Assembly: GCF_900156415.1 (NCBI RefSeq) | Contig: NZ_FTNM01000002.1 | Location: forward strand, 434,001-498,000 | DNA from: Pontibacter lucknowensis | GTDB taxonomy: Bacteria > Bacteroidota > Bacteroidia > Cytophagales > Hymenobacteraceae | Length of the DNA stretch: 64,000 nt | Direction: 5' to 3' | Part shown: piece by piece, positions 1,496 to 63,742 of the stretch | Layout of the letters: each line of letters starts with the position of its first letter | Position numbering within the stretch: position 1 is the stretch's first letter | The notes under the pieces: model-generated | Told to the model about the DNA's origin: nothing | The model's database searches: none | The model's input: the letters and a program-made list of their open reading frames with translations, nothing else | Made by a program: the position numbers and the translations under genes

Positions 1496-1674
1496 TGCGT
1501 TTATACCTGTCTGCAAACTAACCAAAGTCATCTTTGTGTATGACTGCTGTCATCGCGCATGGGTAGGAAGTTGCGCTACTTCGCATTGTTGCGGTCAAAC
1601 ACAAATGATCAGGTAATTTATAATAGCCTGGCGTACGTTGGCCCGTTTACACCACCTTCCAAAACGATGCGGAC

Positions 1675-2949
1675 ATGGAAAAAAGTTTTACCCGAAAACT
1701 GCTGCTGTTAGCGGCTTTTATATGGCTGCCCCTGGAAACAGCCTGGGCCCAGCTATACCTGACACCACAGGTGAGGCCAAGAGCTGAGTGGCGCAATGGC
1801 TACCAAAGCTTGCCTGATGGTCAGAATGGTGCCTTTTTTGTAAACCAGCGCTCCCGGCTCACACTTGATTACAAGCAAGACAAGGTGCAGATGAAATTTA
1901 GTTTACAGGACGTCAGGGTATGGGGCGATGAGCTACACCTGAAAGACGTGCCTTCCATGGCCATGCACGAGGCCTGGGGAGAATTTGCATTGTCAGATAA
2001 GTTCGCAGTCAGGCTAGGCCGGCAGGAATTCGTTTACAACAACGATCGCCTGCTTGGCAATGTGGATTGGGTACAGCAGGCTCGAAGTCATGATGGGGTG
2101 CTGCTCAAAGCAAGGTGGCAGGGGATAAGCCTTGATGCAGGCGGTGTTTTTAACCAGGAGAGAGAAGCGCTATTTGATACCCATTACAGTATGAACAACT
2201 ACAAAGTACTCGGCTTCCTGTGGGCACAGAAACAGCTGAATGACCAACTATCGGTATCAGTCATGCATATTAGCGACGGCTTTCAGCGACCTGATACTGT
2301 AGGCGGTGTTTACTTCCGGCATACCTACGGCCTGGACCTGAACTACCAGCAGGAACGTGCGCAGTTCAACGGTGCCCTGTACAGACAGTCAGGCGAGCAT
2401 AGCAGTGGCAAGCGGATCTCAGCCTACCTGGCGGTGGCAGAAGCATCCTATTCCTTCCAGCCTTTGCGCTTCACAATTGGCACAACTTATCTGTCCGGTA
2501 TGACAGGGCATGACAGCAAAGTGCGTTCCTTCAACACGCTGTATGCTACCAACCATAAGTTCTATGGCTTCATGGATTACTTTATCAATGTTCCGGCAGA
2601 CACACGACAGGGCGGATTGCATAACAGCTACTTTAAAACCAGCTATACACCAAAGGGTAAGTACAGCCTTTCATTGGACTACCACTATTTTGCACTGGCC
2701 AAAAACCTTGGTGCTACAGAAACACTTCCCGGCACCAGCGATCGTTATTTAGGTTCAGAGCTGGATGCTGTGGTCCATTACAAGCACTCTGATCAAATTC
2801 AGTTTTTTATTGGGTATAGTACATTGTTTCCGGGCAGCTCCATGGAAGCGATAAAGCCAGGCAGTGCTGCTGCCTATGCCGATTGGGGGTGGGTGATGGT
2901 CAATATCCAGCCGCGTATCCTGCTGAAGTCGTTTGAGAAAGATAGATAA
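1675..2949 (+). CDS. Alginate-export-like outer membrane beta-barrel protein
   Basis: 424 residues. A signal peptide (KLLLLAAFIWLPLETAWAQ) is followed directly by YLTPQVRPRAEWRNGY and a long run of alternating aromatic and polar strands (FFVNQRSRLTLDYKQDKVQMKF), ending close to the C-terminus. This matches the alginate-export (Alginate_exp) family of outer membrane channels. No alginate genes are nearby, so the solute is unknown and a general porin role is as likely. It is a single-gene unit with terminators on both sides. The 180-nt gap before it shows no clear promoter; the start was chosen because the signal peptide begins there. Confidence 0.75.
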   Translation: MEKSFTRKLLLLAAFIWLPLETAWAQLYLTPQVRPRAEWRNGYQSLPDGQNGAFFVNQRSRLTLDYKQDKVQMKFSLQDVRVWGDELHLKDVPSMAMHEAWGEFALSDKFAVRLGRQEFVYNNDRLLGNVDWVQQARSHDGVLLKARWQGISLDAGGVFNQEREALFDTHYSMNNYKVLGFLWAQKQLNDQLSVSVMHISDGFQRPDTVGGVYFRHTYGLDLNYQQERAQFNGALYRQSGEHSSGKRISAYLAVAEASYSFQPLRFTIGTTYLSGMTGHDSKVRSFNTLYATNHKFYGFMDYFINVPADTRQGGLHNSYFKTSYTPKGKYSLSLDYHYFALAKNLGATETLPGTSDRYLGSELDAVVHYKHSDQIQFFIGYSTLFPGSSMEAIKPGSAAAYADWGWVMVNIQPRILLKSFEKDR

Positions 2950-2956
2950 GTTATAA

Positions 2957-2990
2957 AAAAGGCCCTTGCCAAAATCTGGTAAGGGCCTTT
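2957..2990. terminator. Bidirectional terminator
   Basis: The stem AAGGCCCTT / AAGGGCCTT, flanked by A-run and T-rich sequence, lies between convergent genes (porin plus, DUF4168 minus) and should stop transcription from both sides. Confidence 0.85.
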
Positions 2991-3008
2991 CGTTTGCTGG
3001 TGTCAGCT

Positions 3009-3494
3009 CTATTTCGCCATTAGTTCGTGCACTTTTGCCTTCACGGCTTCGTCCTGCTGGTAGGCTGTCACGATCTCTCTGTATTTGTCTTCTGTAATGC
3101 CTTCTTCTTCAAGAGCCTTTTTTACATTTTCTTTTACAGTAGGCTGAATCTCAATTATCTGTTTTGCGGCTTTGTCAAAAGCAGCCAGTTGCTCCGGGCT
3201 TGCACCTGTCTCTGCCAGCTTCTGCTCACGCTGTGCCTGCGCAAATTTGTTAAACTGCTCTACATCCATGCCCGCTTCTTCTATAATGTTGAGCATGTTC
3301 TGCTGCCCTTCCTTCTGGATAGCCGTCACCTTTGCGTTTGCCTGTAAAAACTTTTTGAGTTCCTCTTCAGAGAATCTGTCCTGCTGAAGCTGTTCCTGCT
3401 GGGTTACTTCATCTGCCTGCTGTGCTGATGCGGATTGAGCGTACCCAAGGGCGAAGAGAACGAGAACACCTGACAAAATCTTTTTCATTTTCAT
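3009..3494 (-). CDS. DUF4168 family secreted protein
   Basis: 161 residues: a signal peptide (KKILSGVLVLFALGYAQSASAQ), then a charged helical domain, EELKKFLQANAKVTAIQ and later GMDVEQFNKFAQAQREQK, that fits DUF4168. The domain is found in periplasmic or secreted proteins of no known biochemical activity. A second possible start, MKKI, lies two codons inside. The gene stands alone, reads away from the tRNA and shares a terminator with the porin. Confidence in the family is good; the function is unknown. Confidence 0.75.
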   Translation of the reverse strand: MKMKKILSGVLVLFALGYAQSASAQQADEVTQQEQLQQDRFSEEELKKFLQANAKVTAIQKEGQQNMLNIIEEAGMDVEQFNKFAQAQREQKLAETGASPEQLAAFDKAAKQIIEIQPTVKENVKKALEEEGITEDKYREIVTAYQQDEAVKAKVHELMAK

Positions 3495-3692
3495 GATCGG
3501 TTGTTTTAAGGGATTAGGTTAAAAAAGAGTCACAAAAGGCTTCTGGCAGGTCGACTGCAGGAGCCCATAAATTTTAAGATAGTAAAAACAGGAGCTAGTG
3601 CCAAAAGAAAAAGAAATCTCTTCTGAGAGGTCAACACAATTGCCAGATTATGCAAAATGCAGGAGGGATGAGGTGTGCAGGCAAGAAGGCAT
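3495..3692. other. Non-coding gap between DUF4168 gene and tRNA terminator
   Basis: Upstream region of the minus-strand DUF4168 gene. I see no coding sequence and no clear TAnnTTTG promoter here. Confidence 0.5.
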
Positions 3693-3724
3693 AAAAAAAG
3701 CCCCAGACATAGTCTGGAGCTTTG
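3693..3724 (-). terminator. Terminator of tRNA-Met
   Basis: On the minus strand a near-perfect 9-bp stem (GCTCCAGAC / GTCTGGGGC, one mismatch) followed by seven T lies directly after the tRNA 3' end. Confidence 0.85.
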
Positions 3725-3798
3725 TAGCGGGGAGCAGAATCGAACTGCCGACCTCAGGGTTATGAATCCTGCGCTCTAACCATCTGAGCTACCCCGCC
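3725..3798 (-). tRNA. tRNA-Met (anticodon CAT)
   Basis: On the minus strand the 74-nt sequence starts GGCGGGGTAGCTCAG and folds as a cloverleaf: acceptor GGCGGGG/CCCCGCT, D arm GCTC/GAGC, anticodon loop TTCATAA, T arm GGCAG/CTGCT with loop TTCGATT. The anticodon is CAT. The 3' CCA is not encoded. It lacks the initiator feature of three GC pairs at the end of the anticodon stem, so elongator Met is preferred; Ile2 with a lysidine-modified CAT cannot be excluded by eye. Confidence 0.92.
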
Positions 3799-3933
3799 GA
3801 ATTGTGGTGCAAATATAAGAGGTAAGTTTTTAAAAAAGCAACAATTGATGCACAAAAAAATATTTTATTTTCTGTATATTTAGCAAATCAGAAATTAATA
3901 CTATACTTACTCAGTCACTTACAATACCAGACA

Positions 3934-51866: not shown

Positions 51867-51886
51867 TTTTTAACCCTACCCGAAAG

Positions 51887-53296
51887 ATGACAAAGTATAA
51901 GATTACGACAACGCACAAGCGCCTACTGGCCGACACACTTACGCCGGTGAGTGTATACCTGAAGCTGCGCGACCGCTTTCCGAACAGTATCTTACTCGAG
52001 AGCTCTGACTACCATGGAGCGGAGAACAGCTTCTCCTATATCTGTTGCAGCCCGATGGCGAGTATCAAGGCGGAGAATGAAGTGTTGACTGAAATTTTTC
52101 CGGATGGTCGCACGCTGCAGACTACCATCACCAGAGACTTAAATATACCTGCCCGACTATCGGAGTTTGCCAGCAGGTTTGAGCCGGAGCAAAATAGCTT
52201 CAACTTTATCAGCAATGGTTTGTTTGGCTACATGAACTATGATGCCGTGCGCTATTTCGAGGACATTGACTTGGAGTTGCGCAGCGACCGCCAACAGATG
52301 CCGGATCTTTATTATGCCGTGTACCGCTACATTATTGCGATCAACCACTTCACCAACGAAGCTTATATTTTCTCGCATTCTTACGGAGAGAAAGACAAGA
52401 GCGGTATAGCGCAACTCGAAGCCTTGCTCAATAGCCGCAACATTCCGAGCTATACCTTTAAGTCTATAGGCGAGGAGGCTTGCAACATTGGCCGGGAGGC
52501 ATTTTTGCATAACATCAAGCGGGCGAAGGAGCACTGTTTCCGAGGCGATGTTTTCCAACTGGTGCTTTCCCGCCGTTTTGAGCAGGCTTTTCAGGGCGAT
52601 GACTTTAACGTGTACCGAGCACTGCGTTCTGTTAACCCATCGCCATACTTGTTCTACTTCGATTACGGCAACTTCAAGATCTTTGGCTCCTCGCCCGAGG
52701 CGCAGTTGGTGATCAAAGACGGCAAAGCCAGCATTTTCCCGATTGCGGGCACGTTCCGCCGAACCGGCGATGATGCCGCCGATGCCGCTCTGGCTGAAAA
52801 GCTTCTGGCCGATCCGAAGGAGAACGCCGAGCACGTGATGTTAGTGGATCTGGCCCGCAACGACCTGAGCCGCAACGGCCACAGCGTGGAGGTCGAAACG
52901 TTCCGTGAAATTCAGTTTTACTCGCACGTGATTCACCTAGTGTCTAAAGTATCAGGGCAACTACACGATCAAAAAGACTCGCTGCAGATGGTAGCCAGCA
53001 CCTTCCCGGCCGGTACGCTTTCAGGTGCTCCCAAATACAAGGCTATGCAGCTGATCGATCAGTACGAAACCACCAACCGCGCTTTCTACGGAGGCTGCAT
53101 CGGCTTCATGGACTTCAACGGCAATTTCAACAGCGCCATCATGATCCGCTCCTTCCTGAGTAAAGACTACAAACTCTTCTACCAGGCCGGTGCCGGCATT
53201 GTGGCGGCCTCTGACGACAATAGCGAATTGCAGGAAGTGGACAATAAACTAATGGCTTTGCGCAAAGCCCTCACCTTAGCACAGGAGATCAATTAA
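51887..53296 (+). CDS. trpE: Anthranilate synthase component I
   Basis: 469 residues. The chorismate-binding fold has SPSPYLFYFDYGNFKIFGSS, PIAGTFRRTGDDAADAALAE, DLARNDLSRNGHSVEVETFR, TFPAGTLSGAPKYKAMQLID and the final QAGAGIVAASDDNSELQEVD. The N-terminal LLESSDYHGAENSFSYI is the region where Trp feedback binds in the family (LLES motif present). It works with TrpG, 1 nt downstream. Confidence 0.96.
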   Translation: MTKYKITTTHKRLLADTLTPVSVYLKLRDRFPNSILLESSDYHGAENSFSYICCSPMASIKAENEVLTEIFPDGRTLQTTITRDLNIPARLSEFASRFEPEQNSFNFISNGLFGYMNYDAVRYFEDIDLELRSDRQQMPDLYYAVYRYIIAINHFTNEAYIFSHSYGEKDKSGIAQLEALLNSRNIPSYTFKSIGEEACNIGREAFLHNIKRAKEHCFRGDVFQLVLSRRFEQAFQGDDFNVYRALRSVNPSPYLFYFDYGNFKIFGSSPEAQLVIKDGKASIFPIAGTFRRTGDDAADAALAEKLLADPKENAEHVMLVDLARNDLSRNGHSVEVETFREIQFYSHVIHLVSKVSGQLHDQKDSLQMVASTFPAGTLSGAPKYKAMQLIDQYETTNRAFYGGCIGFMDFNGNFNSAIMIRSFLSKDYKLFYQAGAGIVAASDDNSELQEVDNKLMALRKALTLAQEIN

Positions 53297-53297
53297 C

Positions 53298-53861
53298 ATG
53301 AAAGTTCTGGTAATCGACAATTACGATTCGTTCACCTACAACCTAGTGCACTTGTTGCAGGAACTGGGTGCTGAAGTGACCGTGCGACGAAACGATAAGA
53401 CAAGCTTAGAAGAAGTGTCACAATTTGACAAGATCATGCTGTCGCCGGGACCAGGTATACCGGACGAGGCAGGTATGCTGAAGGAAATCATCCGGGAGTT
53501 TGGCCCTTCGAAAAGCCTGTTTGGGGTATGCCTTGGGCATCAGGCAATAGGTGAGGTATACGGTGGTAAACTGTTTAACAGCAACGAGGTATGGCACGGC
53601 ATTGCTACCCCTGTTGAAGTGAAATGCGAAGAAGAAGTCCTCTTCCGAAACCTTCCTCAGCAGTTCAACACGGGGCGCTACCACTCTTGGCTGGTAGAGC
53701 AAAATTTGCCGGACTGTCTGGTGCCAACGGCGGTGGATGCATCCGGAAACATTATGGCGCTGCGCCACCGCCACTATGATGTGCGCGGCGTGCAGTTCCA
53801 CCCGGAGTCGGTGCTGACGGAGCACGGTCGGGATATGATCAGGAACTGGTTAACGCATTAA
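53298..53861 (+). CDS. trpG: Anthranilate synthase component II (glutamine amidotransferase)
   Basis: 187 residues, class I GATase. VIDNYDSFTYNLVHLLQELG, LSPGPGIPDEAGM, the nucleophile Cys in FGVCLGHQAIGEVYGGKL (about 78) and catalytic His/Glu in VQFHPESVLTEHG. It delivers ammonia from glutamine to TrpE. Alternatively it could also serve para-aminobenzoate synthesis, as in other bacteria. Stand-alone, not fused to trpD. Confidence 0.95.
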   Translation: MKVLVIDNYDSFTYNLVHLLQELGAEVTVRRNDKTSLEEVSQFDKIMLSPGPGIPDEAGMLKEIIREFGPSKSLFGVCLGHQAIGEVYGGKLFNSNEVWHGIATPVEVKCEEEVLFRNLPQQFNTGRYHSWLVEQNLPDCLVPTAVDASGNIMALRHRHYDVRGVQFHPESVLTEHGRDMIRNWLTH

Positions 53862-53862
53862 A

Positions 53863-53931
53863 TGTCATCTCGACGATAGGAGAGATCTGAATTAGAAAGG
53901 CAGCATATTTCTCGCTGTGTTCGAAAAGACA
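53863..53931. repeat. REP-like imperfect inverted repeat
   Basis: TGTCATCTCGACGATAGGAG at the left and TTTCTCGCTGTGTTCGAAAA followed by GACA at the right are imperfect reverse complements of each other (TGTC...GACA ends). It closely resembles the short REP-like repeats scattered in intergenic regions of many Bacteroidota. It occupies most of the trpG-trpD gap. Confidence 0.6.
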
Positions 53932-53943
53932 AAAACATCAATC

Positions 53944-54954
53944 ATGAAAGAAATACTGAACCACTTATTTGAACATAAAACGCTTAGCCGGGAGCAGGCA
54001 CAGGAGGTGCTGAAGAACATTGCTGCGGGCAGGTATAACCAAAGCCAGATTTCCAGCTTTCTGACGGTTTACATGATGCGCAGCATTACCGTGGAGGAAC
54101 TGGAGGGTTTCCGCAATGCCCTGCTGGAGCTTTGCCACCGTGTAGAGTTGGACGCTTACGACCCGATAGACCTCTGCGGCACAGGCGGTGACGGTAAGGA
54201 TACCTTTAATATCTCCACGCTATCTTCTTTTGTAGTAGCGGCTAATGGAATCGCAGTAGCCAAACACGGCAACTACGGTGTGTCTTCTTCCTGCGGTTCT
54301 TCCAACGTGTTGGAGGCATTAGGTATTCAGTTCACCACCGACAAAGATAAACTGGAGCGCAGCATTGCTGAGTATAACATTTGTTTCCTCCACGCACCAC
54401 TATTCCATCCGGCCATGAAGAGCGTCGGGCCGATCCGGAAAGACCTTGGTGTGAAGACCTTTTTCAACATGCTCGGCCCGATGGTGAATCCGGCTTTCCC
54501 GAAGAAACAGCTGGTGGGAGTTTTCAGTCTGGAACTGGCCCGCATGTATGGCTACCTCTACCAGCAGCAGCCCGACATCAGGTATAGTATCCTTCATACA
54601 TTGGACGGCTACGATGAGATTTCCCTGACAAGCCCTTTCAAAGTGATCGCCGACAGCAAAGAGCAACTTCTCGACGCCGGCGATTTAGGACTTGGCCGAT
54701 TGGAGCACAGCCAGATCAAAGGAGGGGAAGGTATAGCCGAGTCGGCTGAGATTTTTCTGAAGGTGATCAAAGGCGAAGGTACGGCTGCCCAGACGGATGT
54801 GGTCGCCGCCAATGCCGGCATGGCCATCCACTGCGCCCGCCCCGAAACCGCTATACCTGATGCCGTTGCTTTGGCTAAAGAGACACTCCAATCAGGAAGA
54901 GCTTATGCCTTATTTAACAAACTGATAAATGACAACAAGCTGGTAACAGCCTAA
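53944..54954 (+). CDS. trpD: Anthranilate phosphoribosyltransferase
   Basis: 336 residues from ATG at 53944; an in-frame GTG at 53917 lies in the REP-like element and was rejected. DLCGTGGDGKDTFNISTLSS (PRPP loop), VAKHGNYGVSSSCGSSNVLE, FLHAPLFHPAMKSVGPIRKD and FFNMLGPMVNPAFPKKQLVG. It transfers phosphoribose to anthranilate. Confidence 0.95.
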   Translation: MKEILNHLFEHKTLSREQAQEVLKNIAAGRYNQSQISSFLTVYMMRSITVEELEGFRNALLELCHRVELDAYDPIDLCGTGGDGKDTFNISTLSSFVVAANGIAVAKHGNYGVSSSCGSSNVLEALGIQFTTDKDKLERSIAEYNICFLHAPLFHPAMKSVGPIRKDLGVKTFFNMLGPMVNPAFPKKQLVGVFSLELARMYGYLYQQQPDIRYSILHTLDGYDEISLTSPFKVIADSKEQLLDAGDLGLGRLEHSQIKGGEGIAESAEIFLKVIKGEGTAAQTDVVAANAGMAIHCARPETAIPDAVALAKETLQSGRAYALFNKLINDNKLVTA

Positions 54955-54998
54955 TCATTTTGCAATCCTTAAATTTCCAAACTCTAAATCTGAAAATC

Positions 54999-55823
54999 AT
55001 GAATATTCTCGACGAGATCATCGCCCATAAATACAAGGAAGTAGAAGAGCGAAAGGCGCTATACCCGGTGAAGTTACTGGAGAAGAGCCTGTATTTTGAG
55101 ACGCCGTGTCTGTCGCTGGAGCGCTACCTGCTGCGACCGGATAAAAGCGGCATTATTGCCGAGATCAAGCGCAAGTCTCCTTCTAAGGGGGACATCAACC
55201 CCTATGTATCGGTGGAGCGCACCTCCATTGGCTACATGCAGGCGGGAGCTTCGGCTCTATCTATCCTGACGGACTCGAACTACTTCGGAGGCAAAAACGA
55301 AGACCTGATGATCGCCCGCAAGTATAACTACTGCCCGATCCTGCGCAAAGACTTTACCGTGGACGAGTACCAGATCGTGGAAGCGAAGTCGATCGGTGCT
55401 GATGCCATTCTGCTGATTGCCGCTGCACTGGAGCCGGAGAGACTAAAGCAACTGGCAGCTTTTGCCCGCTCTTTTGGGCTGGAAGTATTGCTGGAAGTGC
55501 ATTCTCAGCAAGAACTGGAAGCTTCGTTAAGTGAAGACGTGACGATCGTGGGAGTGAACAACCGCAATCTTCAGACTTTCCAGACCGATGTTGCCCTTTC
55601 TTTGGAGTTGGCTCAGCACATCCCGTCAGGTATGACCAAGGTGTCGGAAAGTGGTTTGAAATCACCGAAAACGTTGATAGAGCTGCAGGCGGCAGGGTAT
55701 AATGGCTTCCTGATCGGGGAGACCTTCATGACTGATGGTCGTCCGGAACGTGCAGCAGCCGAGTTTATCCGGGAGCTGCGCCAGCTGCAGCAAAATTTAT
55801 CACTGGCTTCCGCGCAGGCTTAA
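54999..55823 (+). CDS. trpC: Indole-3-glycerol phosphate synthase
   Basis: 274 residues from ATG at 54999 (MNILDEIIAHKYKEVEERKA); a longer frame from 54960 has no support. IIAEIKRKSPSKGDINP (catalytic Lys), ALSILTDSNYFGGKNEDL, PILRKDFTVDEYQIVEA, VGVNNRNLQTFQTDVALS and VSESGLKSPKTL. It closes the indole ring. Not fused to trpF here. Confidence 0.95.
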   Translation: MNILDEIIAHKYKEVEERKALYPVKLLEKSLYFETPCLSLERYLLRPDKSGIIAEIKRKSPSKGDINPYVSVERTSIGYMQAGASALSILTDSNYFGGKNEDLMIARKYNYCPILRKDFTVDEYQIVEAKSIGADAILLIAAALEPERLKQLAAFARSFGLEVLLEVHSQQELEASLSEDVTIVGVNNRNLQTFQTDVALSLELAQHIPSGMTKVSESGLKSPKTLIELQAAGYNGFLIGETFMTDGRPERAAAEFIRELRQLQQNLSLASAQA

Positions 55824-55847
55824 TGGCAGATTGCAAGCTCTCAATTT

Positions 55848-56504
55848 ATGCATAAGGAAGAGATGAAAGACCTGAAACTAAAAGTATGCGGCATGCGCGA
55901 CCCGGAAAACATCCGGCAGGTGGCCTCGCTGCAACCCGACTACATGGGCTTCATTTTTTATGAAGGCTCCAAGCGCTACTGTGAGGGCTACATCACCCCT
56001 GAACTTTTGGCGGAACTACCGGCAGGTATACAGAAAGTAGGTGTTTTCGTGAATGAAGCTACAGATGTTGTAGAGGCTACAGTTAAGAAATATGGCTTGG
56101 ATCTGGTGCAGTTGCATGGTCGTGAAACGCCGGGCCAGTGCCGGGAATTGCGAGAGGCAGGCATAAAACTGATTAAAGCTTTTTCAGTAGACGACCGCTT
56201 TTCCTTTGAGAACACCTTGCTCTACGAGCGCTACTGCGAGTACTTCCTCTTCGACACCCGCGGCAACAACTACGGCGGCAACGGCACTGTCTTCGACTGG
56301 GAAATGCTGAAAGGCTACTTCTCGCCTATACCTTATTTCCTGAGCGGAGGCCTGAATCTGGAAAACCTGCAGAGCAGGGAATTTGAAGAAGTTCGGCCAA
56401 AGCCTTTTGCCATTGACGTGAACAGCGGCTTTGAGGTGGAACCGGGGCTGAAGGATGTGGAGAAGGTGAAGGAGTTGATTAGCAGGCTTAGGGATAGAGG
56501 CTAG
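55848..56504 (+). CDS. trpF: Phosphoribosylanthranilate isomerase
   Basis: 218 residues, or 213 if it starts at the ATG at 55863. The catalytic Cys is present in LKVCGMRDPENIRQV and the catalytic Asp in FAIDVNSGFEVEPGLKD, with DLVQLHGRETPGQCREL and FFLSGG-type YFLSGGLNLENL. It performs the Amadori rearrangement. This is the true enzyme, in contrast to the degenerate TrpF-like protein at 34.2 kb. Confidence 0.94.
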   Translation: MHKEEMKDLKLKVCGMRDPENIRQVASLQPDYMGFIFYEGSKRYCEGYITPELLAELPAGIQKVGVFVNEATDVVEATVKKYGLDLVQLHGRETPGQCRELREAGIKLIKAFSVDDRFSFENTLLYERYCEYFLFDTRGNNYGGNGTVFDWEMLKGYFSPIPYFLSGGLNLENLQSREFEEVRPKPFAIDVNSGFEVEPGLKDVEKVKELISRLRDRG

Positions 56505-56515
56505 AAGGTTTTTAT

Positions 56516-56638
56516 AGCGCGAGCGTCCTCGCTCGTGCTTATTATGGAGGGGCCTCTGGCCCATTTGTGATTTTTCTCAGCTTAACACTAGGGGCCAGAG
56601 GCCCCACTATAGCTAGTCACGAGCGAGGATGCTCGCGC
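56516..56638. repeat. Nested palindromic element between trpF and trpB
   Basis: Outer arms: GCGCGAGCGTCCTCGCTCGT (from 56517, 21 nt with the last G) and its reverse complement at 56618-56638, 20 of 21 matching. Inner arms: GGGGCCTCTGGCCC (56549-56562) and GGGGCCAGAGGCCCC (56591-56605), 14 of 15. A 28-nt AT-rich centre separates them. It is not a T-tailed terminator; it looks like a small mobile (MITE or REP-like) sequence. Confidence 0.8.
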
Positions 56639-56666
56639 CATGCAGAACCAAAAGATAAAAAAACAC

Positions 56667-57857
56667 ATGAAATACTCAGTAGACGAAAACGGATTCTACG
56701 GCAAGTTCGGCGGGGCTTATGTTCCCGAAATGCTATTCCCCAACGTGGAGGAACTGCGTGAGAACTATTTGAAGATCATGGCTGAGCCGGATTTTCAGGA
56801 GGAAATGCAGAGCTTGCTCCGCGATTATGTAGGTCGCCCGACGCCGCTATACTTTGCCAAGCGCCTATCCGAGAAGTATAACACCAACATCTACCTCAAA
56901 CGAGAAGACCTGAACCATACCGGAGCGCATAAGATCAACAACACCATCGGGCAGATTTTGCTGGCCAAGCGACTGGGCAAGACCCGCATCATTGCCGAGA
57001 CGGGAGCTGGTCAGCATGGTGTGGCCACGGCAACGGTTTGTGCACTGATGAACCTTGAGTGTATCGTGTACATGGGTGAAGTAGACATTGAACGGCAGGC
57101 TCCTAATGTAGCTAGAATGAATATGTTAGGAGCCACAGTAGTGCCTGCTGCCAGCGGCAGTAAAACGCTGAAAGATGCCACGAACGAAGCTATTCGCGAC
57201 TGGATCAATAACCCGGAAGACACTTACTACATCATCGGTTCGGTGGTGGGTCCGCACCCGTACCCGGACATGGTGGCCCGCTTTCAGGCGGTGATCTCGG
57301 AGGAGATGAAAGCGCAGTTGCTGGAGAAAACCGGCAGCGAGAACCCGGATTATGTGGTCGCCTGTGTAGGCGGCGGCAGCAATGCGGCGGGTGCTTTTTA
57401 CCATTACCTCGACACACCAGAGGTGAAGCTCGTGGCAGTTGAGGCTGCCGGCCTAGGTATAGACTCCGGTGAGTCCGCCGCTACCTCGGTGCTGGGCAAA
57501 GAAGGAATCATCCACGGCAGTCGCACTTTGCTGATGCAGACCGAAGATGGACAGGTAACTGAGCCTTATTCTATTTCTGCCGGTCTCGACTATCCGGGCG
57601 TTGGTCCGCTGCATGCGCATCTGCACCAGTCGGGCCGGGCTATTTTTGAGAGCATCACCGACGAGGAGGCACTGCAGGCGGTGTTGGAACTGACTAGACT
57701 CGAAGGCATTATACCTGCGCTGGAAACAGCCCACGCCTTGGCCGCAATCGGCAGACTGGGCGCGAAGCCGGAGGAAGTAGTAGTGATCAACTTATCAGGG
57801 CGCGGTGACAAAGACTTGGCAACTTACTTAGACAGATTCAATTTCGATGGAAAATAG
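56667..57857 (+). CDS. trpB: Tryptophan synthase beta chain
   Basis: 396 residues from ATG at 56667 ([20 protein letters not shown]). The frame extends to an ATG at 56640, but this one overlaps the palindromic element. PLP lysine in [36 protein letters not shown] phosphate site [15 protein letters not shown], and [14 protein letters not shown]. Joins indole with serine. It overlaps trpA by 11 nt. Confidence 0.97.
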
Positions 57858-58635
57858 AATTCAGCAACTATTCGCCCAAAAGCCAAAGGGCTTGCTATCG
57901 GTTTACTTCACGGCAGGCTTCCCGAGTTTAGAAGACACGGTGCCAATCATATTGGAACTGGAGAAGAACGGCGTGGACCTGATTGAAATCGGCATGCCTT
58001 TTTCAGACCCGCTGGCTGACGGTCCGACTATTCAGCAAAGTTCTGAAGTGGCGATCCGCAATGGCATGACTATACCTAAGCTGTTTGCCCAATTGCAGGA
58101 CATCCGGCAGCATACCCAGATTCCGCTGGTGCTGATGGGCTACCTAAACCCGGTGATGCAGTACGGCGTGGAGCGCTTTATGCAAAAAGCAAGCGAACTA
58201 GGTATAGACGGTTTGATTTTACCGGACCTGCCATTGTCAGATTATGTGCGGGAGTATAAGGAATTGTTCGAGCAAAACGGGCTCAGCAATATTTTCCTGA
58301 TCACGCCGCAGACACCGGAGCAACGCATCCGCGAAATCGATGCGCATACCAATGGCTTTATTTATATGGTTTCGTCGGCCTCGGTAACAGGAAGCACCAC
58401 GGGTCAGTCTGTAGTCAACACGGGCTATTTTGAACGGGTAAACGGAATGGGTCTGCGCAATCCGGGCATCATCGGCTTTGGTATCCACAACCACGAGACC
58501 TTCACGCAGGCCTGCAACCACGCCAGCGGCGCGATCATCGGCAGTGCTTTTATTAAGGCTCTGGCCAAAGAGGGCAGCCTGACCGAGAACATTAGCACAT
58601 TTATTCAAAGCATCAGACAGAACGAAATCGCATGA
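57847..58635 (+). CDS. trpA: Tryptophan synthase alpha chain
   Basis: 262 residues. [20 protein letters not shown], the catalytic Glu in [38 protein letters not shown], Asp in [11 protein letters not shown] and the phosphate-binding FGIHNHETF. Releases indole from indole-glycerol phosphate and channels it to TrpB. It overlaps the DAHP synthase gene by 4 nt. Confidence 0.96.
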
Positions 58636-59642
58636 TCATACAATTGCAACAAGGTATACCTGATCAACTACTGGAAGTTATACTGCAGGAAGTAAAAGGT
58701 ATAGGCTTTAAAGCCAATGAAGTAAAAACGCAGGAAGCACACTACATTGTCGGCATCGGCAAGAAAGACTTTGATATCCGTACACTGGGTCAGTTGCCGG
58801 GCGTTGCGGACATCCACCGCGTGTCAGACGAGTACAAGCTGATCTCCCGCAAGTGGCGCGTGAATCCGACGCTGATCGACTTGGGCAATGGTGTGGTGAT
58901 CGGAGAGGGCAACTTCAGCATTATGGCAGGTCCGTGCTCTATTGAAAGTGAGCGGCAGATCGAGCTGGTAGTGGAACACCTGAAAGCCAACAACGTGAAG
59001 ATCATGCGGGGCGGTGTGTTCAAGCCACGCAGTTCGCCTTATGCTTTTAGAGGGATGGGGCTGGAAGGGCTGCGCATGTTCCACCAGCTTTGCAGCCAGA
59101 ACGGCATCAAGATCATTACGGAAGTAATGCAGGTATCGCAGATAGAAGACATGATAGACTACGTAGATGTGTTTCAGGTAGGAGCCCGTAACAGCCAGAA
59201 CTTCAATTTGCTTGATTCACTGGGTGAGGCACAAAAGCCCGTTTTGCTGAAGCGTGGCATCTCCGGCACGTTGGAAGAGTTGCTGCAAGCGGCGGAATAC
59301 ATTTTCTCGAACGGCAATGAAAAGATCATGCTTTGCGAGCGCGGCATCCGCTCCTACGAAAACGCCTACCGTAACGTACTCGACCTGAACGCGGTGCCGG
59401 TGCTCAAGGCCAAAACCCACCTGCCAGTGATTGTCGATCCATCGCACGGCATCGGTCTGCGCGACCATGTAGAGCCCATGTCACTGGCCGCTGTGATGGC
59501 AGGTGCCGACGGCGTGATCTACGAAACGCACCAAAAGCCGGAAGAAGCCTTCTCGGACGGGCAACAGACAGTTAACTTCCAGGAATCTGAACGTCTGATC
59601 AAGCGCATGCGACAGGCCTTTGCGTTAAGGGAGAGCTTTTAA
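58632..59642 (+). CDS. aroF: 3-deoxy-7-phosphoheptulonate (DAHP) synthase, Thermotoga type
   Basis: 336 residues. The N-terminal part (about 1-70, QGIPDQLLEVILQEVKGIGF) is a ferredoxin-like regulatory domain; the catalytic barrel has FSIMAGPCSIESERQIELV, MRGGVFKPRSSPYAFRGMG, QVGARNSQNFNLL, KPVLLKRGISGTLEELLQAA, LCERGIRSYENA, and PVIVDPSHGIGLRDHVEPM. This is the type I-beta class with an allosteric N-domain that in family members senses Phe/Tyr. As the first enzyme of the shikimate pathway and the last trp operon gene, its synthesis is tied to the Trp attenuator. Confidence 0.93.
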   Translation: MIIQLQQGIPDQLLEVILQEVKGIGFKANEVKTQEAHYIVGIGKKDFDIRTLGQLPGVADIHRVSDEYKLISRKWRVNPTLIDLGNGVVIGEGNFSIMAGPCSIESERQIELVVEHLKANNVKIMRGGVFKPRSSPYAFRGMGLEGLRMFHQLCSQNGIKIITEVMQVSQIEDMIDYVDVFQVGARNSQNFNLLDSLGEAQKPVLLKRGISGTLEELLQAAEYIFSNGNEKIMLCERGIRSYENAYRNVLDLNAVPVLKAKTHLPVIVDPSHGIGLRDHVEPMSLAAVMAGADGVIYETHQKPEEAFSDGQQTVNFQESERLIKRMRQAFALRESF

Positions 59643-59699
59643 GGTATAGCTGTCTGAATCTTCATACAGGGCCCCTTCTCCAAAGATTATTAAAGCTAC

Positions 59700-59730
59700 A
59701 AAAGCCTGATGCGGAAGTGTCAGGCTTTTG
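59700..59730 (+). terminator. Terminator of the trp operon
   Basis: A 10-bp stem AAAAGCCTGA / TCAGGCTTTT with a 10-nt loop, 57 nt after the aroF stop. Confidence 0.88.
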
Positions 59731-59787
59731 CACTCTAAGTTATAACCAACCTTGCTTTTTGCGTACTAAATCATATAACATTTGCCT

Positions 59788-60534
59788 ATGCAGAAACTAT
59801 ACTTACTAATAGAGATTAAACTAATACTTCCGGTGCTTTTAGCTACAATGCTTTTCACCAGTTGCACGTCACTTCAGGAATCTTCTAAGTATTCGTTTTC
59901 TGAAGGAATCTATAAGGCAAAAATTTCAAGAGAACCGGCAGCCAAAGTATACGTGGACATGGGGGAAGAATCACTCAGACTATATCCCGCGCAAGATTAC
60001 ACAAGAGGACAAGCTGTTCAGCTCGATACGACGTCCAAAATTACACTCGCTATACCTGAGGAATTAGATGCGGCGCCAGGCCATACCTATACCTTCTCAA
60101 AGCCGTCCTTTGATCTGGATGTGCTCACCATCCCGTTTAAATACCGACCAGGCACGGCAGGTATACCGAATCAACTCAACACGACTTTTCAGGGAGCTCT
60201 GTTTATAGGTGCTCGCCGGGATGTTTTCCGGATCAATTACAAAGCGACTCCTGTGGGCAATCACCGGCGTTTTTTGAACCATTTCGGGTATAGTTTCGGC
60301 TTGTTTTCAGGTATAGGCGCTACGACTGTGAATGAGGCCGTGACAGGTGGACAGGTAGGGTATGAATATGAAGGTGTTGTGTTGTTGAATGGGGTGGCGG
60401 GTATTGTTGGCATCAACAATTTCACCTTCGGTTTGGCGCTGGGCTTTGATCATCTCCTCGATAAGTACCGCCACGATTGGGTATACCAGCGCAAGCCCTG
60501 GTTAGGTTTGGCTTTTGGCTTGAACCTGAACTAG
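59788..60534 (+). CDS. Predicted lipoprotein of unknown function
   Basis: 248 residues from ATG at 59788 (a TTG two codons earlier is in frame). Lipobox in LILPVLLATMLFTSC; the mature part is beta-rich with YSFSEGIYKAKI, then VYVDMGEESLRLYP and a Gly-rich C-terminal stretch (GYSFGLFSGIGATTVNEAVT, FGLALGFDHLL) that looks like a small membrane-associated barrel or sheet. I do not recognise the family. It stands alone. Confidence 0.7.
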   Translation: MQKLYLLIEIKLILPVLLATMLFTSCTSLQESSKYSFSEGIYKAKISREPAAKVYVDMGEESLRLYPAQDYTRGQAVQLDTTSKITLAIPEELDAAPGHTYTFSKPSFDLDVLTIPFKYRPGTAGIPNQLNTTFQGALFIGARRDVFRINYKATPVGNHRRFLNHFGYSFGLFSGIGATTVNEAVTGGQVGYEYEGVVLLNGVAGIVGINNFTFGLALGFDHLLDKYRHDWVYQRKPWLGLAFGLNLN

Positions 60535-60753
60535 TGGGCTGCGGCCTATTAGAAATCATGAATTCAAAATTAGAAATGCTGTAAAGCTTAATCTTCTTGA
60601 TTTGCCAGTCAGGAGCTCTTCCCTAAAATTAGATTTATGGAATACCTTCTTCATGCCTTTAAAAGAACTGAAGGCAAGGAACAACTGAATGAAATGACAA
60701 ACTTCTTAATTAACATAAGACTTTTGTTTTTAGGCTAAACCAATATGCATAAA
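60535..60753. other. Gap downstream of the lipoprotein gene
   Basis: AT-rich, with a 33-codon frame at 60637-60738 that reads MEYLLHAFKRTEGKEQLNEM and so on; no ribosome-binding site or homology that I recognise. It may be non-coding or a gene remnant. Confidence 0.35.
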
Positions 60754-60783
60754 AAAGCCCGGTACAATTCAGTACCGGGCTTT
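60754..60783. terminator. Bidirectional terminator
   Basis: A 12-bp stem (AAAGCCCGGTAC / GTACCGGGCTTT) directly behind the S9 peptidase stop codon, which reads in from the minus strand. Confidence 0.92.
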
Positions 60784-60788
60784 CTGTT

Positions 60789-62837
60789 TTAATTTGCTTT
60801 TTTATCTAGCGTTTCATCTAACCACTTGAAGAATTCACGCTGCCATACCATGGCGTTTTGCGGCTGCAGCACCCAGTGGTTTTCATCCGGCAGATATAGC
60901 AAGCGGCTCTTGATGCCTTTCAGCTGTGCCAGCTGGAAAGCTTGTAAGCCTTGCTCTATACCTACCCGGAAGTCCTGTCCGCCCTGCACGATCAGGATCG
61001 GCGTGTCCCACTTATTAGAAAGTTCGATCGGGTTGTATTCCTTGTAGCTCTGAGGAGACTTCGTATCCCAATAAGGCCCCTTCAATTCGTTGTTGGCAAA
61101 GAACATTTCTTCGGTGGTGCCATACCAGCTGCGCATGTCAAACAGGCCATCATGCGCTATGAAAGTCTTGAAACGACCTTCATGCAGACCAGCCAGCATA
61201 AACACGGAGTAGCCACCGTAGCTCGCGCCGATCGCTCCCAGTCGGTCTTTGTCTACATAAGACTCCTTGGCCACATCGTCGATGGCAGACAGGTAGTCGC
61301 GGATAGGCTGACCGCCCCAGTCGCCGCTGATCTGACGGTTCCATTCTTCACCATGGCCCGGCATGCCTCTACGGTTAGGAGCCACTACGATGTAGCCCTG
61401 AGCCGCTATCAGCTGCAGGTTCCAGCGGTAAGAGTAGAACTGGGTAAGAGCCGATTGCGGGCCGCCCTGGCAGTAAAGTAGTGTCGGGTATTTCTTATTC
61501 GGGTCGAAGTCCGGCGGGTATACCACCCACGAGAACAGGTCTTTGCCGTCGCTGGCTTTGGTCACACGTGGCTCTACTTTGCTCTTCGCCAGCTTGCTGT
61601 ATACCTCGTCGTTCACCGTGGTTAATTGCGTCAGCTTGCCAGACTTGGTATCCAGGCGGTACAGTTCCGGTGCGCGGTTCATGTCGTTGCGTGACACGAT
61701 CAGGTTGTTGCCTGCCTGCCCCACGATACCGTTTACATCGAACTGCCCTTTGGTAACCTGGCGAATGCCTTTGGCCGTGAACTTGTCGAGGTTTTTCGGA
61801 AGCGTGATCTCGTATACCTGAATCGTGCCTTTGGTTGGGGCCACAAACCAGATTTTGCTGCCGTCGTTGCTCCACTCAAATCCATTGATTGTTTCGTCCC
61901 AGTCCATGGTCAGGTTGTGCTTCTTGCCAGACTTAGTGTCCAGCACGATCAATTCGTTCTGGTCAGCCTCGTTGCCATCTTCGTCCATTGCCAGCCAAGC
62001 CAGTTTAGAGCCATCAGCGCTATAGGTTGGGTGGGTGTCGTAGCCTAGGTTGCCTTCGGTGAGGTTGGTCGTTTTTCTGCTGGCGATGTCATAGCGGTAA
62101 ATATCGGTGTTGGTACTCACGGCGTAGTCCTTGCCGAACTTCTTCTTGCTCACGTAAAGGATCGCCTTGCTGTCCGGGCTCCAGATGACGTCTTCTTTGC
62201 CACCGAAAGGCTTTTGAGGCGCATCGAATGGCTCGCCTTTCATCAGGTCAACCGGTGTGCCCAACTGCCCATTATTGTAGCTGGCGTAGAAGATGTGCTG
62301 AAACTTACCGTCTTCCCATGTATCCCAGTGGCGGTAGTTCAGGTCGTCGTACACGTAAGCATTGGACTTTTTTAGCTCCGGGTATATGTCGGAGCTGTGC
62401 ATCTTTCTCACTTCCACTTCGCGGGAAAATAGTAGGTTTTTTCCGTCCGGAGAGAAGCGCACGTTGCTCAGTCCGCCTTCCACGCTGGTTAGTTGTTTGG
62501 GTTCACCTTTGCCGCCGGCTAACTGCCACAGCTGACCTTTGTGCAGGTATACGATGTTGCCTGTCGCCTTGTCGATGTGCACCACGCTTTCGCCGCCTTT
62601 GCTAGAAGTGAGCTGCGTTGGCTGTCCGCCTGAAACAGGTATAGCATAGAGGTTACGCTCACTGTTGTTTTCCTGTACATTGGGGTAGCTTACGCCGTAG
62701 ATCACCGATTTACCGTCAGGAGTAACGGTTTCGGCAGAAACACGGCCCAGTTGCCAGAGTATTTCCGGTGTCATACGCTGTTGTGCCTGCACCATCGTTG
62801 CGGCAAACACGCCAGCTAGTATCATTATCTTTTTCAT
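60789..62837 (-). CDS. Secreted S9-family serine peptidase (prolyl oligopeptidase type)
   Basis: 682 residues: a signal peptide (KKIMILAGVFAATMVQAQ), a beta-propeller part with WD40-like/TolB repeats (about 35-390, for example VRFSPDGKNLLFS, DVIWSPDSKAILYVSKK, THPTYSADGSKLAWLAM) and a C-terminal alpha/beta hydrolase (about 430-682). The catalytic triad is Ser in GAIGASYGGYSVFMLAG, Asp in VQGGQDFRVGIEQGL and His in LPDENHWVLQPQN. Closest to DPP/acylaminoacyl-peptidase relatives of Bacteroidota, which clear short peptides in the periplasm. Confidence 0.92.
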   Translation of the reverse strand: MKKIMILAGVFAATMVQAQQRMTPEILWQLGRVSAETVTPDGKSVIYGVSYPNVQENNSERNLYAIPVSGGQPTQLTSSKGGESVVHIDKATGNIVYLHKGQLWQLAGGKGEPKQLTSVEGGLSNVRFSPDGKNLLFSREVEVRKMHSSDIYPELKKSNAYVYDDLNYRHWDTWEDGKFQHIFYASYNNGQLGTPVDLMKGEPFDAPQKPFGGKEDVIWSPDSKAILYVSKKKFGKDYAVSTNTDIYRYDIASRKTTNLTEGNLGYDTHPTYSADGSKLAWLAMDEDGNEADQNELIVLDTKSGKKHNLTMDWDETINGFEWSNDGSKIWFVAPTKGTIQVYEITLPKNLDKFTAKGIRQVTKGQFDVNGIVGQAGNNLIVSRNDMNRAPELYRLDTKSGKLTQLTTVNDEVYSKLAKSKVEPRVTKASDGKDLFSWVVYPPDFDPNKKYPTLLYCQGGPQSALTQFYSYRWNLQLIAAQGYIVVAPNRRGMPGHGEEWNRQISGDWGGQPIRDYLSAIDDVAKESYVDKDRLGAIGASYGGYSVFMLAGLHEGRFKTFIAHDGLFDMRSWYGTTEEMFFANNELKGPYWDTKSPQSYKEYNPIELSNKWDTPILIVQGGQDFRVGIEQGLQAFQLAQLKGIKSRLLYLPDENHWVLQPQNAMVWQREFFKWLDETLDKKAN

Positions 62838-62841
62838 GCTC

Positions 62842-62849
62842 CAAAAATA
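62842..62849 (-). promoter_or_regulatory. Promoter -7 element for the S9 peptidase, nearly leaderless
   Basis: The minus strand reads TATTTTTG (TAnnTTTG) ending 4 nt before the ATG at 62837. Confidence 0.5.
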
Positions 62850-62935
62850 ACCGAAAACCCGACATCTTGAAACGACAATCGTATACCTTGTGAAAAAGAA
62901 TCAGGTATAGGCATGGTATTACGCCAGCCGCAACC

Positions 62936-62943
62936 TATATTTG
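62936..62943 (+). promoter_or_regulatory. Promoter -7 element for the second his operon
   Basis: TATATTTG fits TAnnTTTG and is followed by CAGCA and the leader ATG only 5 nt downstream; the stretch TTTGCAGCA is the same as at the hisG and trpE promoters. No good -33 box is seen. Confidence 0.65.
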
Positions 62944-62948
62944 CAGCA

Positions 62949-63026
62949 ATGAAAGGCACAATGGCACATCTGCACCATCATCATGCACGAAGCAATCGTT
63001 TCGGAGCCGTCTGCCTATGGATTTGA
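62949..63026 (+). CDS. His leader peptide for hisHA
   Basis: A 25-codon frame from ATG with MAHLHHHHARSN near the start (five His in six residues) and a TGA stop. It lies 135 nt before hisH. Like the leader of hisG it should sense charged tRNA-His. Confidence 0.85.
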   Translation: MKGTMAHLHHHHARSNRFGAVCLWI

Positions 63027-63086
63027 TTTAGTTTACTAAAATATTCTTTCCAAAAGCCTGACTCCGAACAGAGTCAGGCTTTTTTT
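62988..63086 (+). promoter_or_regulatory. his attenuator: alternative 1:2, 2:3 and 3:4 hairpins
   Basis: 1:2 hairpin: CGAAGC (62988-62993) with GTTTCG (62998-63003), right behind the His codons. 2:3 antiterminator: TTCGGAG (63000-63006) with CTCCGAA (63062-63068), 7 perfect pairs. 3:4 terminator: AAAAGCCTGACTC (63052-63064) with GAGTCAGGCTTTT (63071-63083), seven T in all at 63080-63086. The order of elements is the same as in the trp attenuator. Confidence 0.88.
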
Positions 63087-63160
63087 GTTGTCTGAATCAG
63101 GATTTACAGGATTCAAGGATTTACTAATCATTCGTCACTATTGATTACACATTCAATATA

Positions 63161-63742
63161 ATGGATTTAGTTATAGTTGATTACAAAGCGGGTAATGTGC
63201 AGTCGGTGCAGTTTGCGCTGGAGCGACTCGGTGTACAGGCCACACTGAGCTGCGATTTTGAGACGATCAAGGCGGCGGACAAGGTCATATTTCCGGGCGT
63301 GGGGGAGGCCTCGTCGGCCATGGCACAGTTGCGGGCCCGCAATCTGGATAAGCTGCTACCGACACTTGAGCAGCCTTTTTTTGGAGTTTGTCTGGGTATG
63401 CAGTTACTCTGCGAACATTCTGAAGAAGGTGATACTGATTTGCTCGGCATTATCCCTTTGCCGGTAAAGCGTTTTGAGACAGACCTGAAGGTGCCACACA
63501 TGGGCTGGAACCAGTTAGAGAAGCTGCAATCTCCTTTGTTTGAAGGTATAACCGAAAGGGAATACGCCTATTACGTGCACAGCTATTACGTGCCCTTGAG
63601 CGAATATACTATCGCCCAGACTTCTTATCCGGAGCCATTCTCGGCCGCTTTGCAATACAAAAACTTTTATGCTGCGCAGTTTCACCCCGAAAAAAGTGGT
63701 CCTGCCGGTTCACAGATCCTTAAAAACTTCCTTGCCTTATGA
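63161..63742 (+). CDS. hisH: Imidazole glycerol phosphate synthase, glutaminase subunit
   Basis: 193 residues, class I glutamine amidotransferase. [33 protein letters not shown], nucleophile Cys in [15 protein letters not shown] (about 76), and the His/Glu pair in [17 protein letters not shown]. It supplies ammonia to HisF, which is expected beyond the window. It overlaps hisA by 1 to 4 nt. Confidence 0.95.

What the first reader, a model, noticed from the sequence alone, without database searches (positions are those of the whole stretch)
1502..63550. A seven-base motif, AGGTATA/TATACCT, is present about 105 times in 64 kb
Reading both strands I count roughly 53 AGGTATA and 52 TATACCT. A random 7-mer on both strands at balanced composition would occur about 8 times, so this is about 13-fold enriched. 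It is used in every reading frame: GGT-ATA (Gly-Ile, 4711, 27473), GTA-TAC (Val-Tyr, 40145), AGG-TAT (Arg-Tyr, 39442), ATA-CCT (Ile-Pro, 47911), TAC-CTG (Tyr-Leu, 24294), TAT-ACC (Tyr-Thr, 37178). It also occurs in intergenic DNA (34007, 41702, 51821, 62902). The preceding base is C in about 30 of 53 AGGTATA copies and the next is G or C in about 42, giving CAGGTATA(G/C). Because peptides differ, selection acts on DNA, not protein. Copies are dense at 17.4-22.8 kb and in the his/trp region and nearly absent from ribosomal protein genes, pnp, rpoD and the YDG repeats. Candidate roles: a Chi-like recombination site, a DNA uptake signal, a nucleoid or segregation motif, a methylation target, or an iterated sequence like cyanobacterial HIP1.
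Basis: partly seen in the sequence, partly recalled or inferred. Interest (0 to 1): 0.8.

Follow-up and report, generated by a model that had tools for sequence, protein, structure and literature searches.

The report
Genome-wide DNA tag with species dialects
A Pontibacter bacterium, and most of the genomes held for its genus, carry thousands of copies of a seven-letter DNA word that is spelled differently in different branches, which looks like a self-identification tag of the kind some unrelated bacteria use when taking up DNA, though the protein that reads it is unknown.

Summary
Confirmed, and larger than reported. The window has 53 AGGTATA and 53 TATACCT; the genome has 7101 copies against 300 of the word read backwards. 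Synonymous-codon shuffling explains 54 of 553 coding copies; sense 276, antisense 277.

The word has dialects. Of 50 genomes held for the genus (Pontibacter), 12 use AGGTATA, 20 AAGTATA, 7 AACTATA or a mixture (0.8-3.1 copies per kb); 9 have no strong dialect, 2 other weak words. AGGTATA, and AACTATA with the mixtures, each form one group on a ComEC tree. Copies stay in place within a dialect: 50-82% kept against 9-38% for matched words. Between dialects some are respelled in place, unevenly.

Best reading: the target of an unidentified sequence-specific DNA-reading protein, most likely a self tag for DNA uptake. It is not a proven DNA uptake sequence: type IV prepilin signature in 0 of 50 genomes. 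HIP1 does not fit: not palindromic, no tested methyltransferase family tracks it. Chi and KOPS are disfavoured by near-absent strand bias.

The parts
1502..63550 (.). 106 copies of AGGTATA (53 on +, 53 on -), about one per 600 bp; core of the AGGTATA dialect, preferred context CAGGTATAG(C) (G rare before it, T rare after it)
17406..19982 (-). gene with a Cellulase (GH5) domain match and the highest count in the window: 10 copies, 3.88 per kb
40145..40154 (.). AGGTATACCT: two copies overlapping as a perfect palindrome (40145 + and 40148 -)
58652..58661 (.). AGGTATACCT: second overlapping palindromic pair (58652 + and 58655 -)
51821..51827 (+). intergenic copy upstream of trpE
62882..62909 (.). 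pair of intergenic copies, 62882 - and 62903 +
41000..63550 (.). region with his/trp genes used for the orthologous comparison: 47 copies; in the six same-dialect named loci 33/44, 30/39, 31/38, 25/39, 19/38 and 21/33 of the alignable ones are identical

Best explanation
The word is a genus-specific, DNA-level self tag, read by an unidentified sequence-specific protein. SHOWN: it is massively over-represented, strand-symmetric in the own genome, outside codon logic, and densest between genes. Copies are kept in place within a dialect. The spelling follows the tree of the genus, some genomes carry two spellings at once, and some copies are respelled in place. The TAT(A) part is common to the spellings, while positions 2 and 3 change between the three main ones. 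INFERRED: one vertically inherited DNA-reading protein sets the spelling, and thousands of weakly favoured sites follow when its specificity drifts. Enrichment near 22-fold would need a scaled advantage of about 3 per site (formula), which predicts loss about six-fold slower; the observed slowing is about 2.5- to 6-fold for window copies (hand calculation). MOST LIKELY MECHANISM (inferred): a DNA-uptake or recombination preference. Cells acquire or recombine kin DNA that carries the tag more readily, so tagged alleles spread, as proposed for DUS/USS. The receptor would have to differ from the type IV pilin ComP.
For: Counts, controls and codon null. Dialects: unbiased k-mers in 40-123 kb samples; 15 named Pontibacter/Botryobacter loci one by one; 50 genomes; 39 with a dialect, 9 without a strong one, 2 other. 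Two spellings side by side: G033 (AACTATA 8118, AAGTATA 7552), G058 (6094, 9116), G018 (11674, 5110). Tree: 48 ComEC rows; AGGTATA is one side of a branch (98/99), AACTATA plus mixed genomes likewise (100/100). Conservation: (six same-dialect loci keep 34/45, 30/39, 31/38, 25/39, 19/38 and 21/32, against 0.09-0.38 for phase- and AT-matched words; nine other loci keep 0.03-0.14, against 0.09-0.14 expected). Respelling: AACTATA at window AGGTATA sites in 5/36, 7/37 and 5/34, against 0.17% background. At AGGTATA sites in AAGTATA genomes, AAGTATA is 114 of 226 one-mismatch cells in the trpE region and 130 of 783 in the comEC region, against 6 of 265 in genomes without a dialect in the comEC region. 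Graded tolerance: one-letter neighbours of AGGTATA and AAGTATA are enriched mostly at positions 1, 2 and 7 and not at 4-5. Precedent: Neisseriaceae DUS dialects follow the core phylogeny, share a fixed core, and one genome carries two dialects (PMC3630211, passages). Riemerella columbina, a Bacteroidota member, prefers its own DNA in transformation (PMC7965970, section 16). ComEC in 50 of 50.
Against: No transformation datum for Pontibacter was seen. Type IV prepilin signature PF07963: 0 of 50 genomes. ComEC also occurs in the genomes without the word, so it does not track it. The ComEC frame holds a stop in G046, which has the highest AGGTATA count. Spacing in the own genome fits random placement, with no even spacing. 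In G085 sense copies in genes exceed antisense 477 to 284. Respelling varies by region: at AGGTATA sites in AACTATA genomes, 73 of 426 site-pairs in the trpE region but 4 of 471 in the comEC region; pooled pair counts are not independent. In the trpE region the two loci without a dialect also show AAGTATA in 19 of 56 one-mismatch cells. In the AACTATA dialect two neighbours changed at positions 4-5 are also raised (AACTGTA 2.5x, AACGATA 2.1x). No gene was found that tracks the dialect.
Confidence: 0.42

Rival explanations
1. Chromosome-organising or nucleoid protein: the word is the binding site of an abundant DNA-binding protein that needs many sites, and its specificity drifted between clades.
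For: Graded tolerance like a binding profile; no spacing rule and no strand bias in the own genome; densest between genes.
Against: Nine genomes of the genus live without a strong word of this kind. A structural protein would be expected to resist respelling thousands of sites (argument, not a result). Density in G085 varies from 1.5 to 4.1 per kb with no regional plan visible in 20 sampled places.
Confidence: 0.17
2. Chi-like site: the word protects DNA from a RecBCD/AddAB-type nuclease and promotes repair.
For: Asymmetric 7-9 base word, over-represented, differing between lineages. A slight excess on the G-rich strand in G085 (667 to 588; Spearman 0.63, P=0.003, 20 places).
Against: In the own genome 325 to 323 and 53 to 53 in the window. 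Density up to 3 per kb and enrichment above 20-fold are far beyond Chi (Chi figures recalled). RecBCD/AddAB presence was not tested.
Confidence: 0.12
3. HIP-like epiphenomenon: a DNA methyltransferase recognises the word and methyl-directed repair ratchets it up, as Elhai proposed for cyanobacterial HIP1 and alternate HIPs.
For: Density of the order of HIP1; alternate words in relatives track methyltransferases in cyanobacteria (PMC4390886, abstract and part of section 3.4). PF01555 is found in 10 of 12 AGGTATA and 14 of 20 AAGTATA genomes.
Against: The words are not palindromes. PF01555 is in only 2 of 7 AACTATA/mixed genomes and in 4 of 9 without a dialect. PF02086 hits 13 and PF00145 23 of 50 genomes; strong PF07669 hits are scattered by eye. 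G089 has a hit only to PF02384, while G079 has none better than 4e-10 in any of the five families; both carry thousands of AAGTATA. Other methyltransferase families were not tested.
Confidence: 0.1
4. Defence self-marker: a nuclease, defence or maintenance system spares DNA that carries the word, so tagged sequence is retained and untagged incoming DNA is removed.
For: Genomes with a dialect are smaller and less fragmented than those without: median 4.6 against 5.8 Mb, P=1.4e-5, not corrected for kinship.
Against: I recall no known system of this kind that uses thousands of short contiguous words. No gene was found to track the word.
Confidence: 0.1
5. Mutational or repair bias towards one word, with no function.
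For: Copies accumulate most between genes.
Against: Excess copies outnumber what any single one-letter neighbour could supply, and no neighbour is strongly depleted (lowest 0.5-fold). Changes at two positions are found in place. The spelling is clade-specific.
Confidence: 0.07
6. Codon, codon-pair or dinucleotide artefact.
For: High-order Markov models reduce the excess to 2.3-fold and 1.3-fold in the window.
Against: About ten-fold over synonymous shuffling in three sets of genomes of three dialects; both orientations; denser outside genes; backwards word at background.
Confidence: 0.01

Closest known systems
DNA uptake sequences (DUS) and their dialects in Neisseriaceae
   Same: Short asymmetric word, thousands of copies, spellings that follow the tree, a fixed inner core, a genome with two spellings, relatives without any (PMC3630211, passages).
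   Different: Shorter and different word; no type IV prepilin signature found; different phylum; no uptake shown; 7-mer density up to 3.1 per kb.
Uptake signal sequences (USS) of Pasteurellaceae
   Same: Abundant asymmetric short word. In the uptake-sequence genomes studied one orientation is commoner in reading frames (PMC2346458, abstract), as in G085 (477:284) but not in the own genome (276:277).
   Different: USS copies are biased to gene ends (same abstract); here deciles along genes show no clear trend.
HIP1 and alternate HIPs of cyanobacteria
   Same: Very high density; alternate words in relatives.
   Different: HIPs are palindromes with matching methyltransferases (PMC4390886, abstract); here the words are asymmetric and no tested family tracks them.
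Chi sites
   Same: Asymmetric, over-represented, lineage-specific (recalled).
   Different: Near-absent strand bias, far higher density and enrichment (Chi figures recalled).
KOPS/FtsK and other architecture-imparting words
   Same: Genome-wide short asymmetric words.
   Different: Those are strand-biased (recalled); these hardly are.

Membership tests
DUS/USS | over-represented short word far above composition and codon expectation | tested here: met
DUS/USS | dialects congruent with phylogeny and a shared invariant core | tested here: met
   the tree is of one protein, ComEC
DUS/USS | type IV pilus machinery with a pilin receptor (ComP-like) | tested here: not met
   PF07963 in 0 of 50 genomes; the same search rang in 8 of 14 control genomes. 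Pilins lacking this signature, and other pilus parts, were not searched
DUS/USS | ComEC channel present | tested here: met
   50 of 50 by PF03772, two with a stop inside the frame; also present in genomes without the word
DUS/USS | the word raises DNA uptake or transformation | not testable with these tools
   needs an experiment
HIP1/HIP | palindromic word | tested here: not met
   AGGTATAG, AAGTATAA and AACTATAG are asymmetric; the palindrome AACTATAGTT occurs 129 times in 460 kb of G085
HIP1/HIP | cognate methyltransferase tracks the word | tested here: not met
   five Pfam families scanned over 50 genomes; other families not tested
Chi | bias to the leading strand | tested here: not met
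   by sign of GC skew: G000 325:323; G085 667:588, a weak excess
Chi | attenuates RecBCD/AddAB | not testable with these tools
   needs biochemistry
KOPS/FtsK | strong replichore polarity | tested here: not met
restriction-modification target | word is methylated | not testable with these tools
   no base-modification data held

The most novel reading that the evidence does not exclude
Pontibacter has an undescribed kind of sequence-based DNA self-recognition. A non-pilin, non-methyltransferase reader protein imposes a 7-9 base word on the whole chromosome at up to 3 copies per kb. Lineages that lose it end with larger genomes.
Probability: 0.35. Interest if true: 0.93.

Novelty: new variant of a known kind. 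Interest (0 to 1): 0.8.

Why it matters
Highly iterated words with dialects are documented in Neisseriaceae and cyanobacteria, and the cause of HIP1 is still debated (recalled, and PMC4390886). Here one genus offers three main spellings, mixed genomes, repeated losses and a tree, so the question 'what makes a genome fill with one short word' becomes testable by comparison: the responsible gene should change with the spelling and be lost or altered where the word is lost. If it is a self tag for DNA exchange, it would be the first in the Bacteroidota that I know of (from recall and the searches), in a phylum where the DNA receptor for natural transformation is, as far as I recall, unknown.

Tried and rejected
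Type IV pilin reader: PF07963 in 0 of 50.

Methyltransferase reader: five families, none tracking the dialect (judged by presence tables and by eye, not by a statistical test; the match list was capped).

Replication-polarity roles: disfavoured on strand counts.

Codon-usage artefact: rejected.

Even-spacing function: in the own genome gap counts match random placement within 5-kb blocks; in G085 close pairs are in excess (149 against 86 for 7-25 bp), with many copies in clusters.

Single-mismatch repair (VSP-like) origin: no one-letter neighbour is depleted enough; the Vsr family itself was not searched.

Literature: searches listed no paper on such a word in Pontibacter or Bacteroidota. All but (4 of 4 listed) showed only the top of a longer list. 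The library holds only CC0/CC BY/CC BY-SA papers, and the papers shown matched only its two general words. Papers seen: PMC4390886 (outline, abstract, part 1 of 2 of section 18), PMC7965970 (passages and section 16), PMC3630211 (12 passages), PMC2346458 (abstract and outline); all others as search listings only.

Full report
WHAT IS THERE. The window holds 53 AGGTATA and 53 TATACCT. Its TrpE is 95% identical to that of Pontibacter sp. FD36, and the next best matches are also Pontibacter. The whole genome has 3600 forward and 3501 reverse copies; the backwards word has 148 and 152. In 464 kb of this genome AGGTATA is the most over-represented 7-mer against dinucleotides: 754 observed, 33.5 expected from dinucleotides, 84 from trinucleotides, 322 from an order-4 model. 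The base before is C in 50% and G in 7%, the base after is G in 53% and T in 5%; beyond two or three bases almost nothing is seen.

NOT A CODING EFFECT. Shuffling synonymous codons over 333 roughly called genes, with proteins and codon usage fixed, gives 54 copies against 553 observed. All six frame/orientation classes are enriched, 4.7- to 27-fold; sense 276, antisense 277. The same test gives 9.7-fold (G085, AACTATA) and 10.8-fold (G107 with G123, AAGTATA). In G085 sense copies in genes exceed antisense, 477 to 284, a departure from the symmetry of the own genome. Between genes the word is denser than within: own genome 3.1-4.6 per kb against 1.44; G085 5.3-9.0 against 2.18; G107 with G123 6.5-14.9 against 1.73, the last on 1.4-7.3 kb per class. 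Convergent gaps are the densest each time, so promoters are not the reason.

DIALECTS. Counting all words without prejudice in 40-123 kb samples, and locus by locus, showed that other Pontibacter carry other words: AACTATA (sp. Tf4, P. burrus, uncultured 903), AAGTATA (P. arcticus, P. mangrovi, P. flavimaris, uncultured 905), AGGTATA (sp. FD36, BT731, HSC-14F20, P. indicus, P. roseus, P. aquaedesilientis); P. pamirensis and Botryobacter ruber showed none. Whole-genome counts over the 50 held genomes of the genus, split at 700 copies per Mb for the best word (the gap runs from 593 to 823), give 39 genomes with a dialect, 9 without a strong one (two of them, G131 and G075, with all three words mildly raised) and 2 with other weak words (G115 GGTATA, G002 TATATAA). 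The 39 divide into 12 AGGTATA, 20 AAGTATA and 7 AACTATA or mixed. The peak is 13,168 copies in 4.3 Mb (G085), one per 330 bases.

OUTSIDE THE GENUS. In 40-kb samples of nine genomes from five other genera of the family, none of the three words is among the top words listed. In 62 loci of other Bacteroidota none is among the five top words (three loci under 10 kb were left out). In 285 sampled genomes of the order outside the genus the ratio of ARSTATAV to its backwards control reaches at most 2.5 (G185, 1.2 Mb) and next 1.9 (G317); the six sampled genomes of the genus give 6.6 (G000), 15 (G018), 6.8 (G023), 6.0 (G008), 2.2 (G013) and 1.3 (G002) (ratios by hand).

TREE. With 48 ComEC proteins (two interrupted frames left out), AGGTATA genomes form one group (98/99), AACTATA plus mixed genomes another (100/100). 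AAGTATA needs four changes of label, and so do the genomes without a dialect. The root was placed at the midpoint only. The simplest history is AAGTATA first, then AGGTATA once, AACTATA once through genomes that accept both G and C at position 3, and several losses (inference). ComEC stands in for the species tree; a core-genome tree was not built.

SITES STAY IN PLACE. In the compared region, same-dialect loci keep 34/45, 30/39, 31/38, 25/39, 19/38 and 21/32 window copies unchanged, against 38, 22, 26, 18, 9 and 14% for 7-mers of the same codon phase and A+T. In nine other loci the kept fraction is 0.03-0.14 against 0.09-0.14 expected. Pairwise tests over ten loci agree. Where dialects differ, some orthologous copies carry the other spelling: AACTATA at 5/36, 7/37 and 5/34 window sites against 0.17% background; AAGTATA at 7/40, 4/35, 4/35 and 4/38 against about 0.1%. 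That background is all aligned positions, so for AAGTATA, one letter away, part of the excess is plain homology. Pooled over genome pairs, which are not independent, AACTATA sites aligned to AAGTATA genomes show AAGTATA in 69 of 96 one-mismatch cells (trpE region) and 21 of 82 (comEC region). AGGTATA sites aligned to AAGTATA genomes show AAGTATA in 114 of 226 and 130 of 783; aligned to genomes without a dialect, 19 of 56 and 6 of 265. AGGTATA sites aligned to AACTATA genomes show the two-letter change in 73 of 426 and 4 of 471 site-pairs. The effect is present but uneven.

SHAPE OF THE PREFERENCE. One-letter neighbours of AGGTATA are enriched mainly at positions 1, 2 and 7 (GGGTATA 4.9x, CGGTATA 3.6x, AGGTATG 3.6x, AAGTATA 3.5x), hardly at 4-5 (0.5-1.2x), about two-fold at 6; AAGTATA behaves alike, but in the AACTATA dialect AACTGTA (2.5x) and AACGATA (2.1x) are raised too. 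Decay by mutation alone would enrich all transitions. Spellings changed at positions 2 and 3. This looks like a protein's recognition profile (inference). A site advantage of about 3 in scaled units gives 20-fold enrichment and about six-fold slower loss (simple formula); the slowing read for window copies is 2.5- to 6-fold. Selection and biased transmission cannot be told apart here.

WHAT IT IS NOT. Strand: 325 to 323 by GC-skew sign in the own genome and 667 to 588 in G085, where a weak but nominally significant trend remains. That is unlike KOPS or strongly skewed Chi sites (recalled). Methyltransferases: matches at E up to 0.001 in 31 (PF01555), 13 (PF02086), 23 (PF00145), 47 (PF07669, many weak) and 50 (PF02384, many weak) of 50 genomes. 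PF01555 is in 10 of 12 AGGTATA, 14 of 20 AAGTATA, 2 of 7 AACTATA/mixed and 4 of 9 genomes without a dialect. G089 has a hit only to PF02384, and G079 none better than 4e-10 in any of the five, yet they carry 5476 and 9120 AAGTATA copies. So the HIP model, which needs a cognate enzyme, is not supported by these families. Type IV prepilin signature: 0 of 50.

WHAT IT MOST LIKELY IS. The pattern most resembles DUS dialects of Neisseriaceae (PMC3630211): tree-congruent spellings, fixed core, a double-dialect genome, relatives without. Riemerella columbina, in the same phylum, takes up its own DNA preferentially (PMC7965970), but no comparable word was shown there; its listed k-mers are A/T-rich. 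I therefore favour a self tag for DNA acquisition or recombination read by an unknown protein, at 0.42, and hold the broader claim, a reader protein with drifting specificity acting on DNA, as much better supported. Genomes with a dialect are smaller (median 4.6 against 5.8 Mb) and less fragmented (20 against 90 contigs) than the nine without, the two others left out. This fits a role in shutting out or replacing foreign DNA, but kinship was not corrected for and contig number depends on sequencing.

On re-reading the calls I corrected the description of samples outside the genus, the neighbour profile of the AACTATA dialect, the spread of PF01555, the comEC-region respelling counts and the size of the loss slowing.

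Noticed in passing
L129, L130 (G004, another genus of the family): A different dispersed word, ACCTAGGG, occurs 26 times in 40 kb (30-fold over dinucleotide expectation) with flanks that look unrelated: possibly a second, independent iterated-word system in the same family.
   Followed up: partly
50 genomes of the genus: The nine genomes without a strong dialect are larger and more fragmented than the 39 with one.
   Followed up: partly
L225 (G046), L230 (G089): The ComEC frame holds a stop in these two genomes. G089 has the second-lowest word density of the 39, but G046 has the highest AGGTATA count.
   Followed up: no
L141:12543-13290 and other G085 stretches: Dense clusters of AACTATA (15 copies in about 750 bp) in what looks by eye like a non-coding stretch after a gene end and a terminator-like hairpin.
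   Followed up: partly
L161 (G085:C1:534001-554000): A/T-rich stretch (39% GC) with about half the usual word density, perhaps acquired DNA; its genes were not annotated.
   Followed up: no
L119-L120 (G002), L110-L112 (G115): Weaker or looser words (TATATAA-like; GGTATA with open first position) in two genomes that are neighbours on the ComEC tree: perhaps further or decaying dialects.
   Followed up: partly
L010 (Pontibacter pamirensis): No dialect shows in this locus, yet AAGTATA stands at 3 of 30 sites orthologous to window AGGTATA, as if a former dialect is decaying.
   Followed up: no
window 43133-46105: Large protein with YDG and MBG_2 repeats and a Por secretion C-terminal sorting domain.
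   Followed up: no
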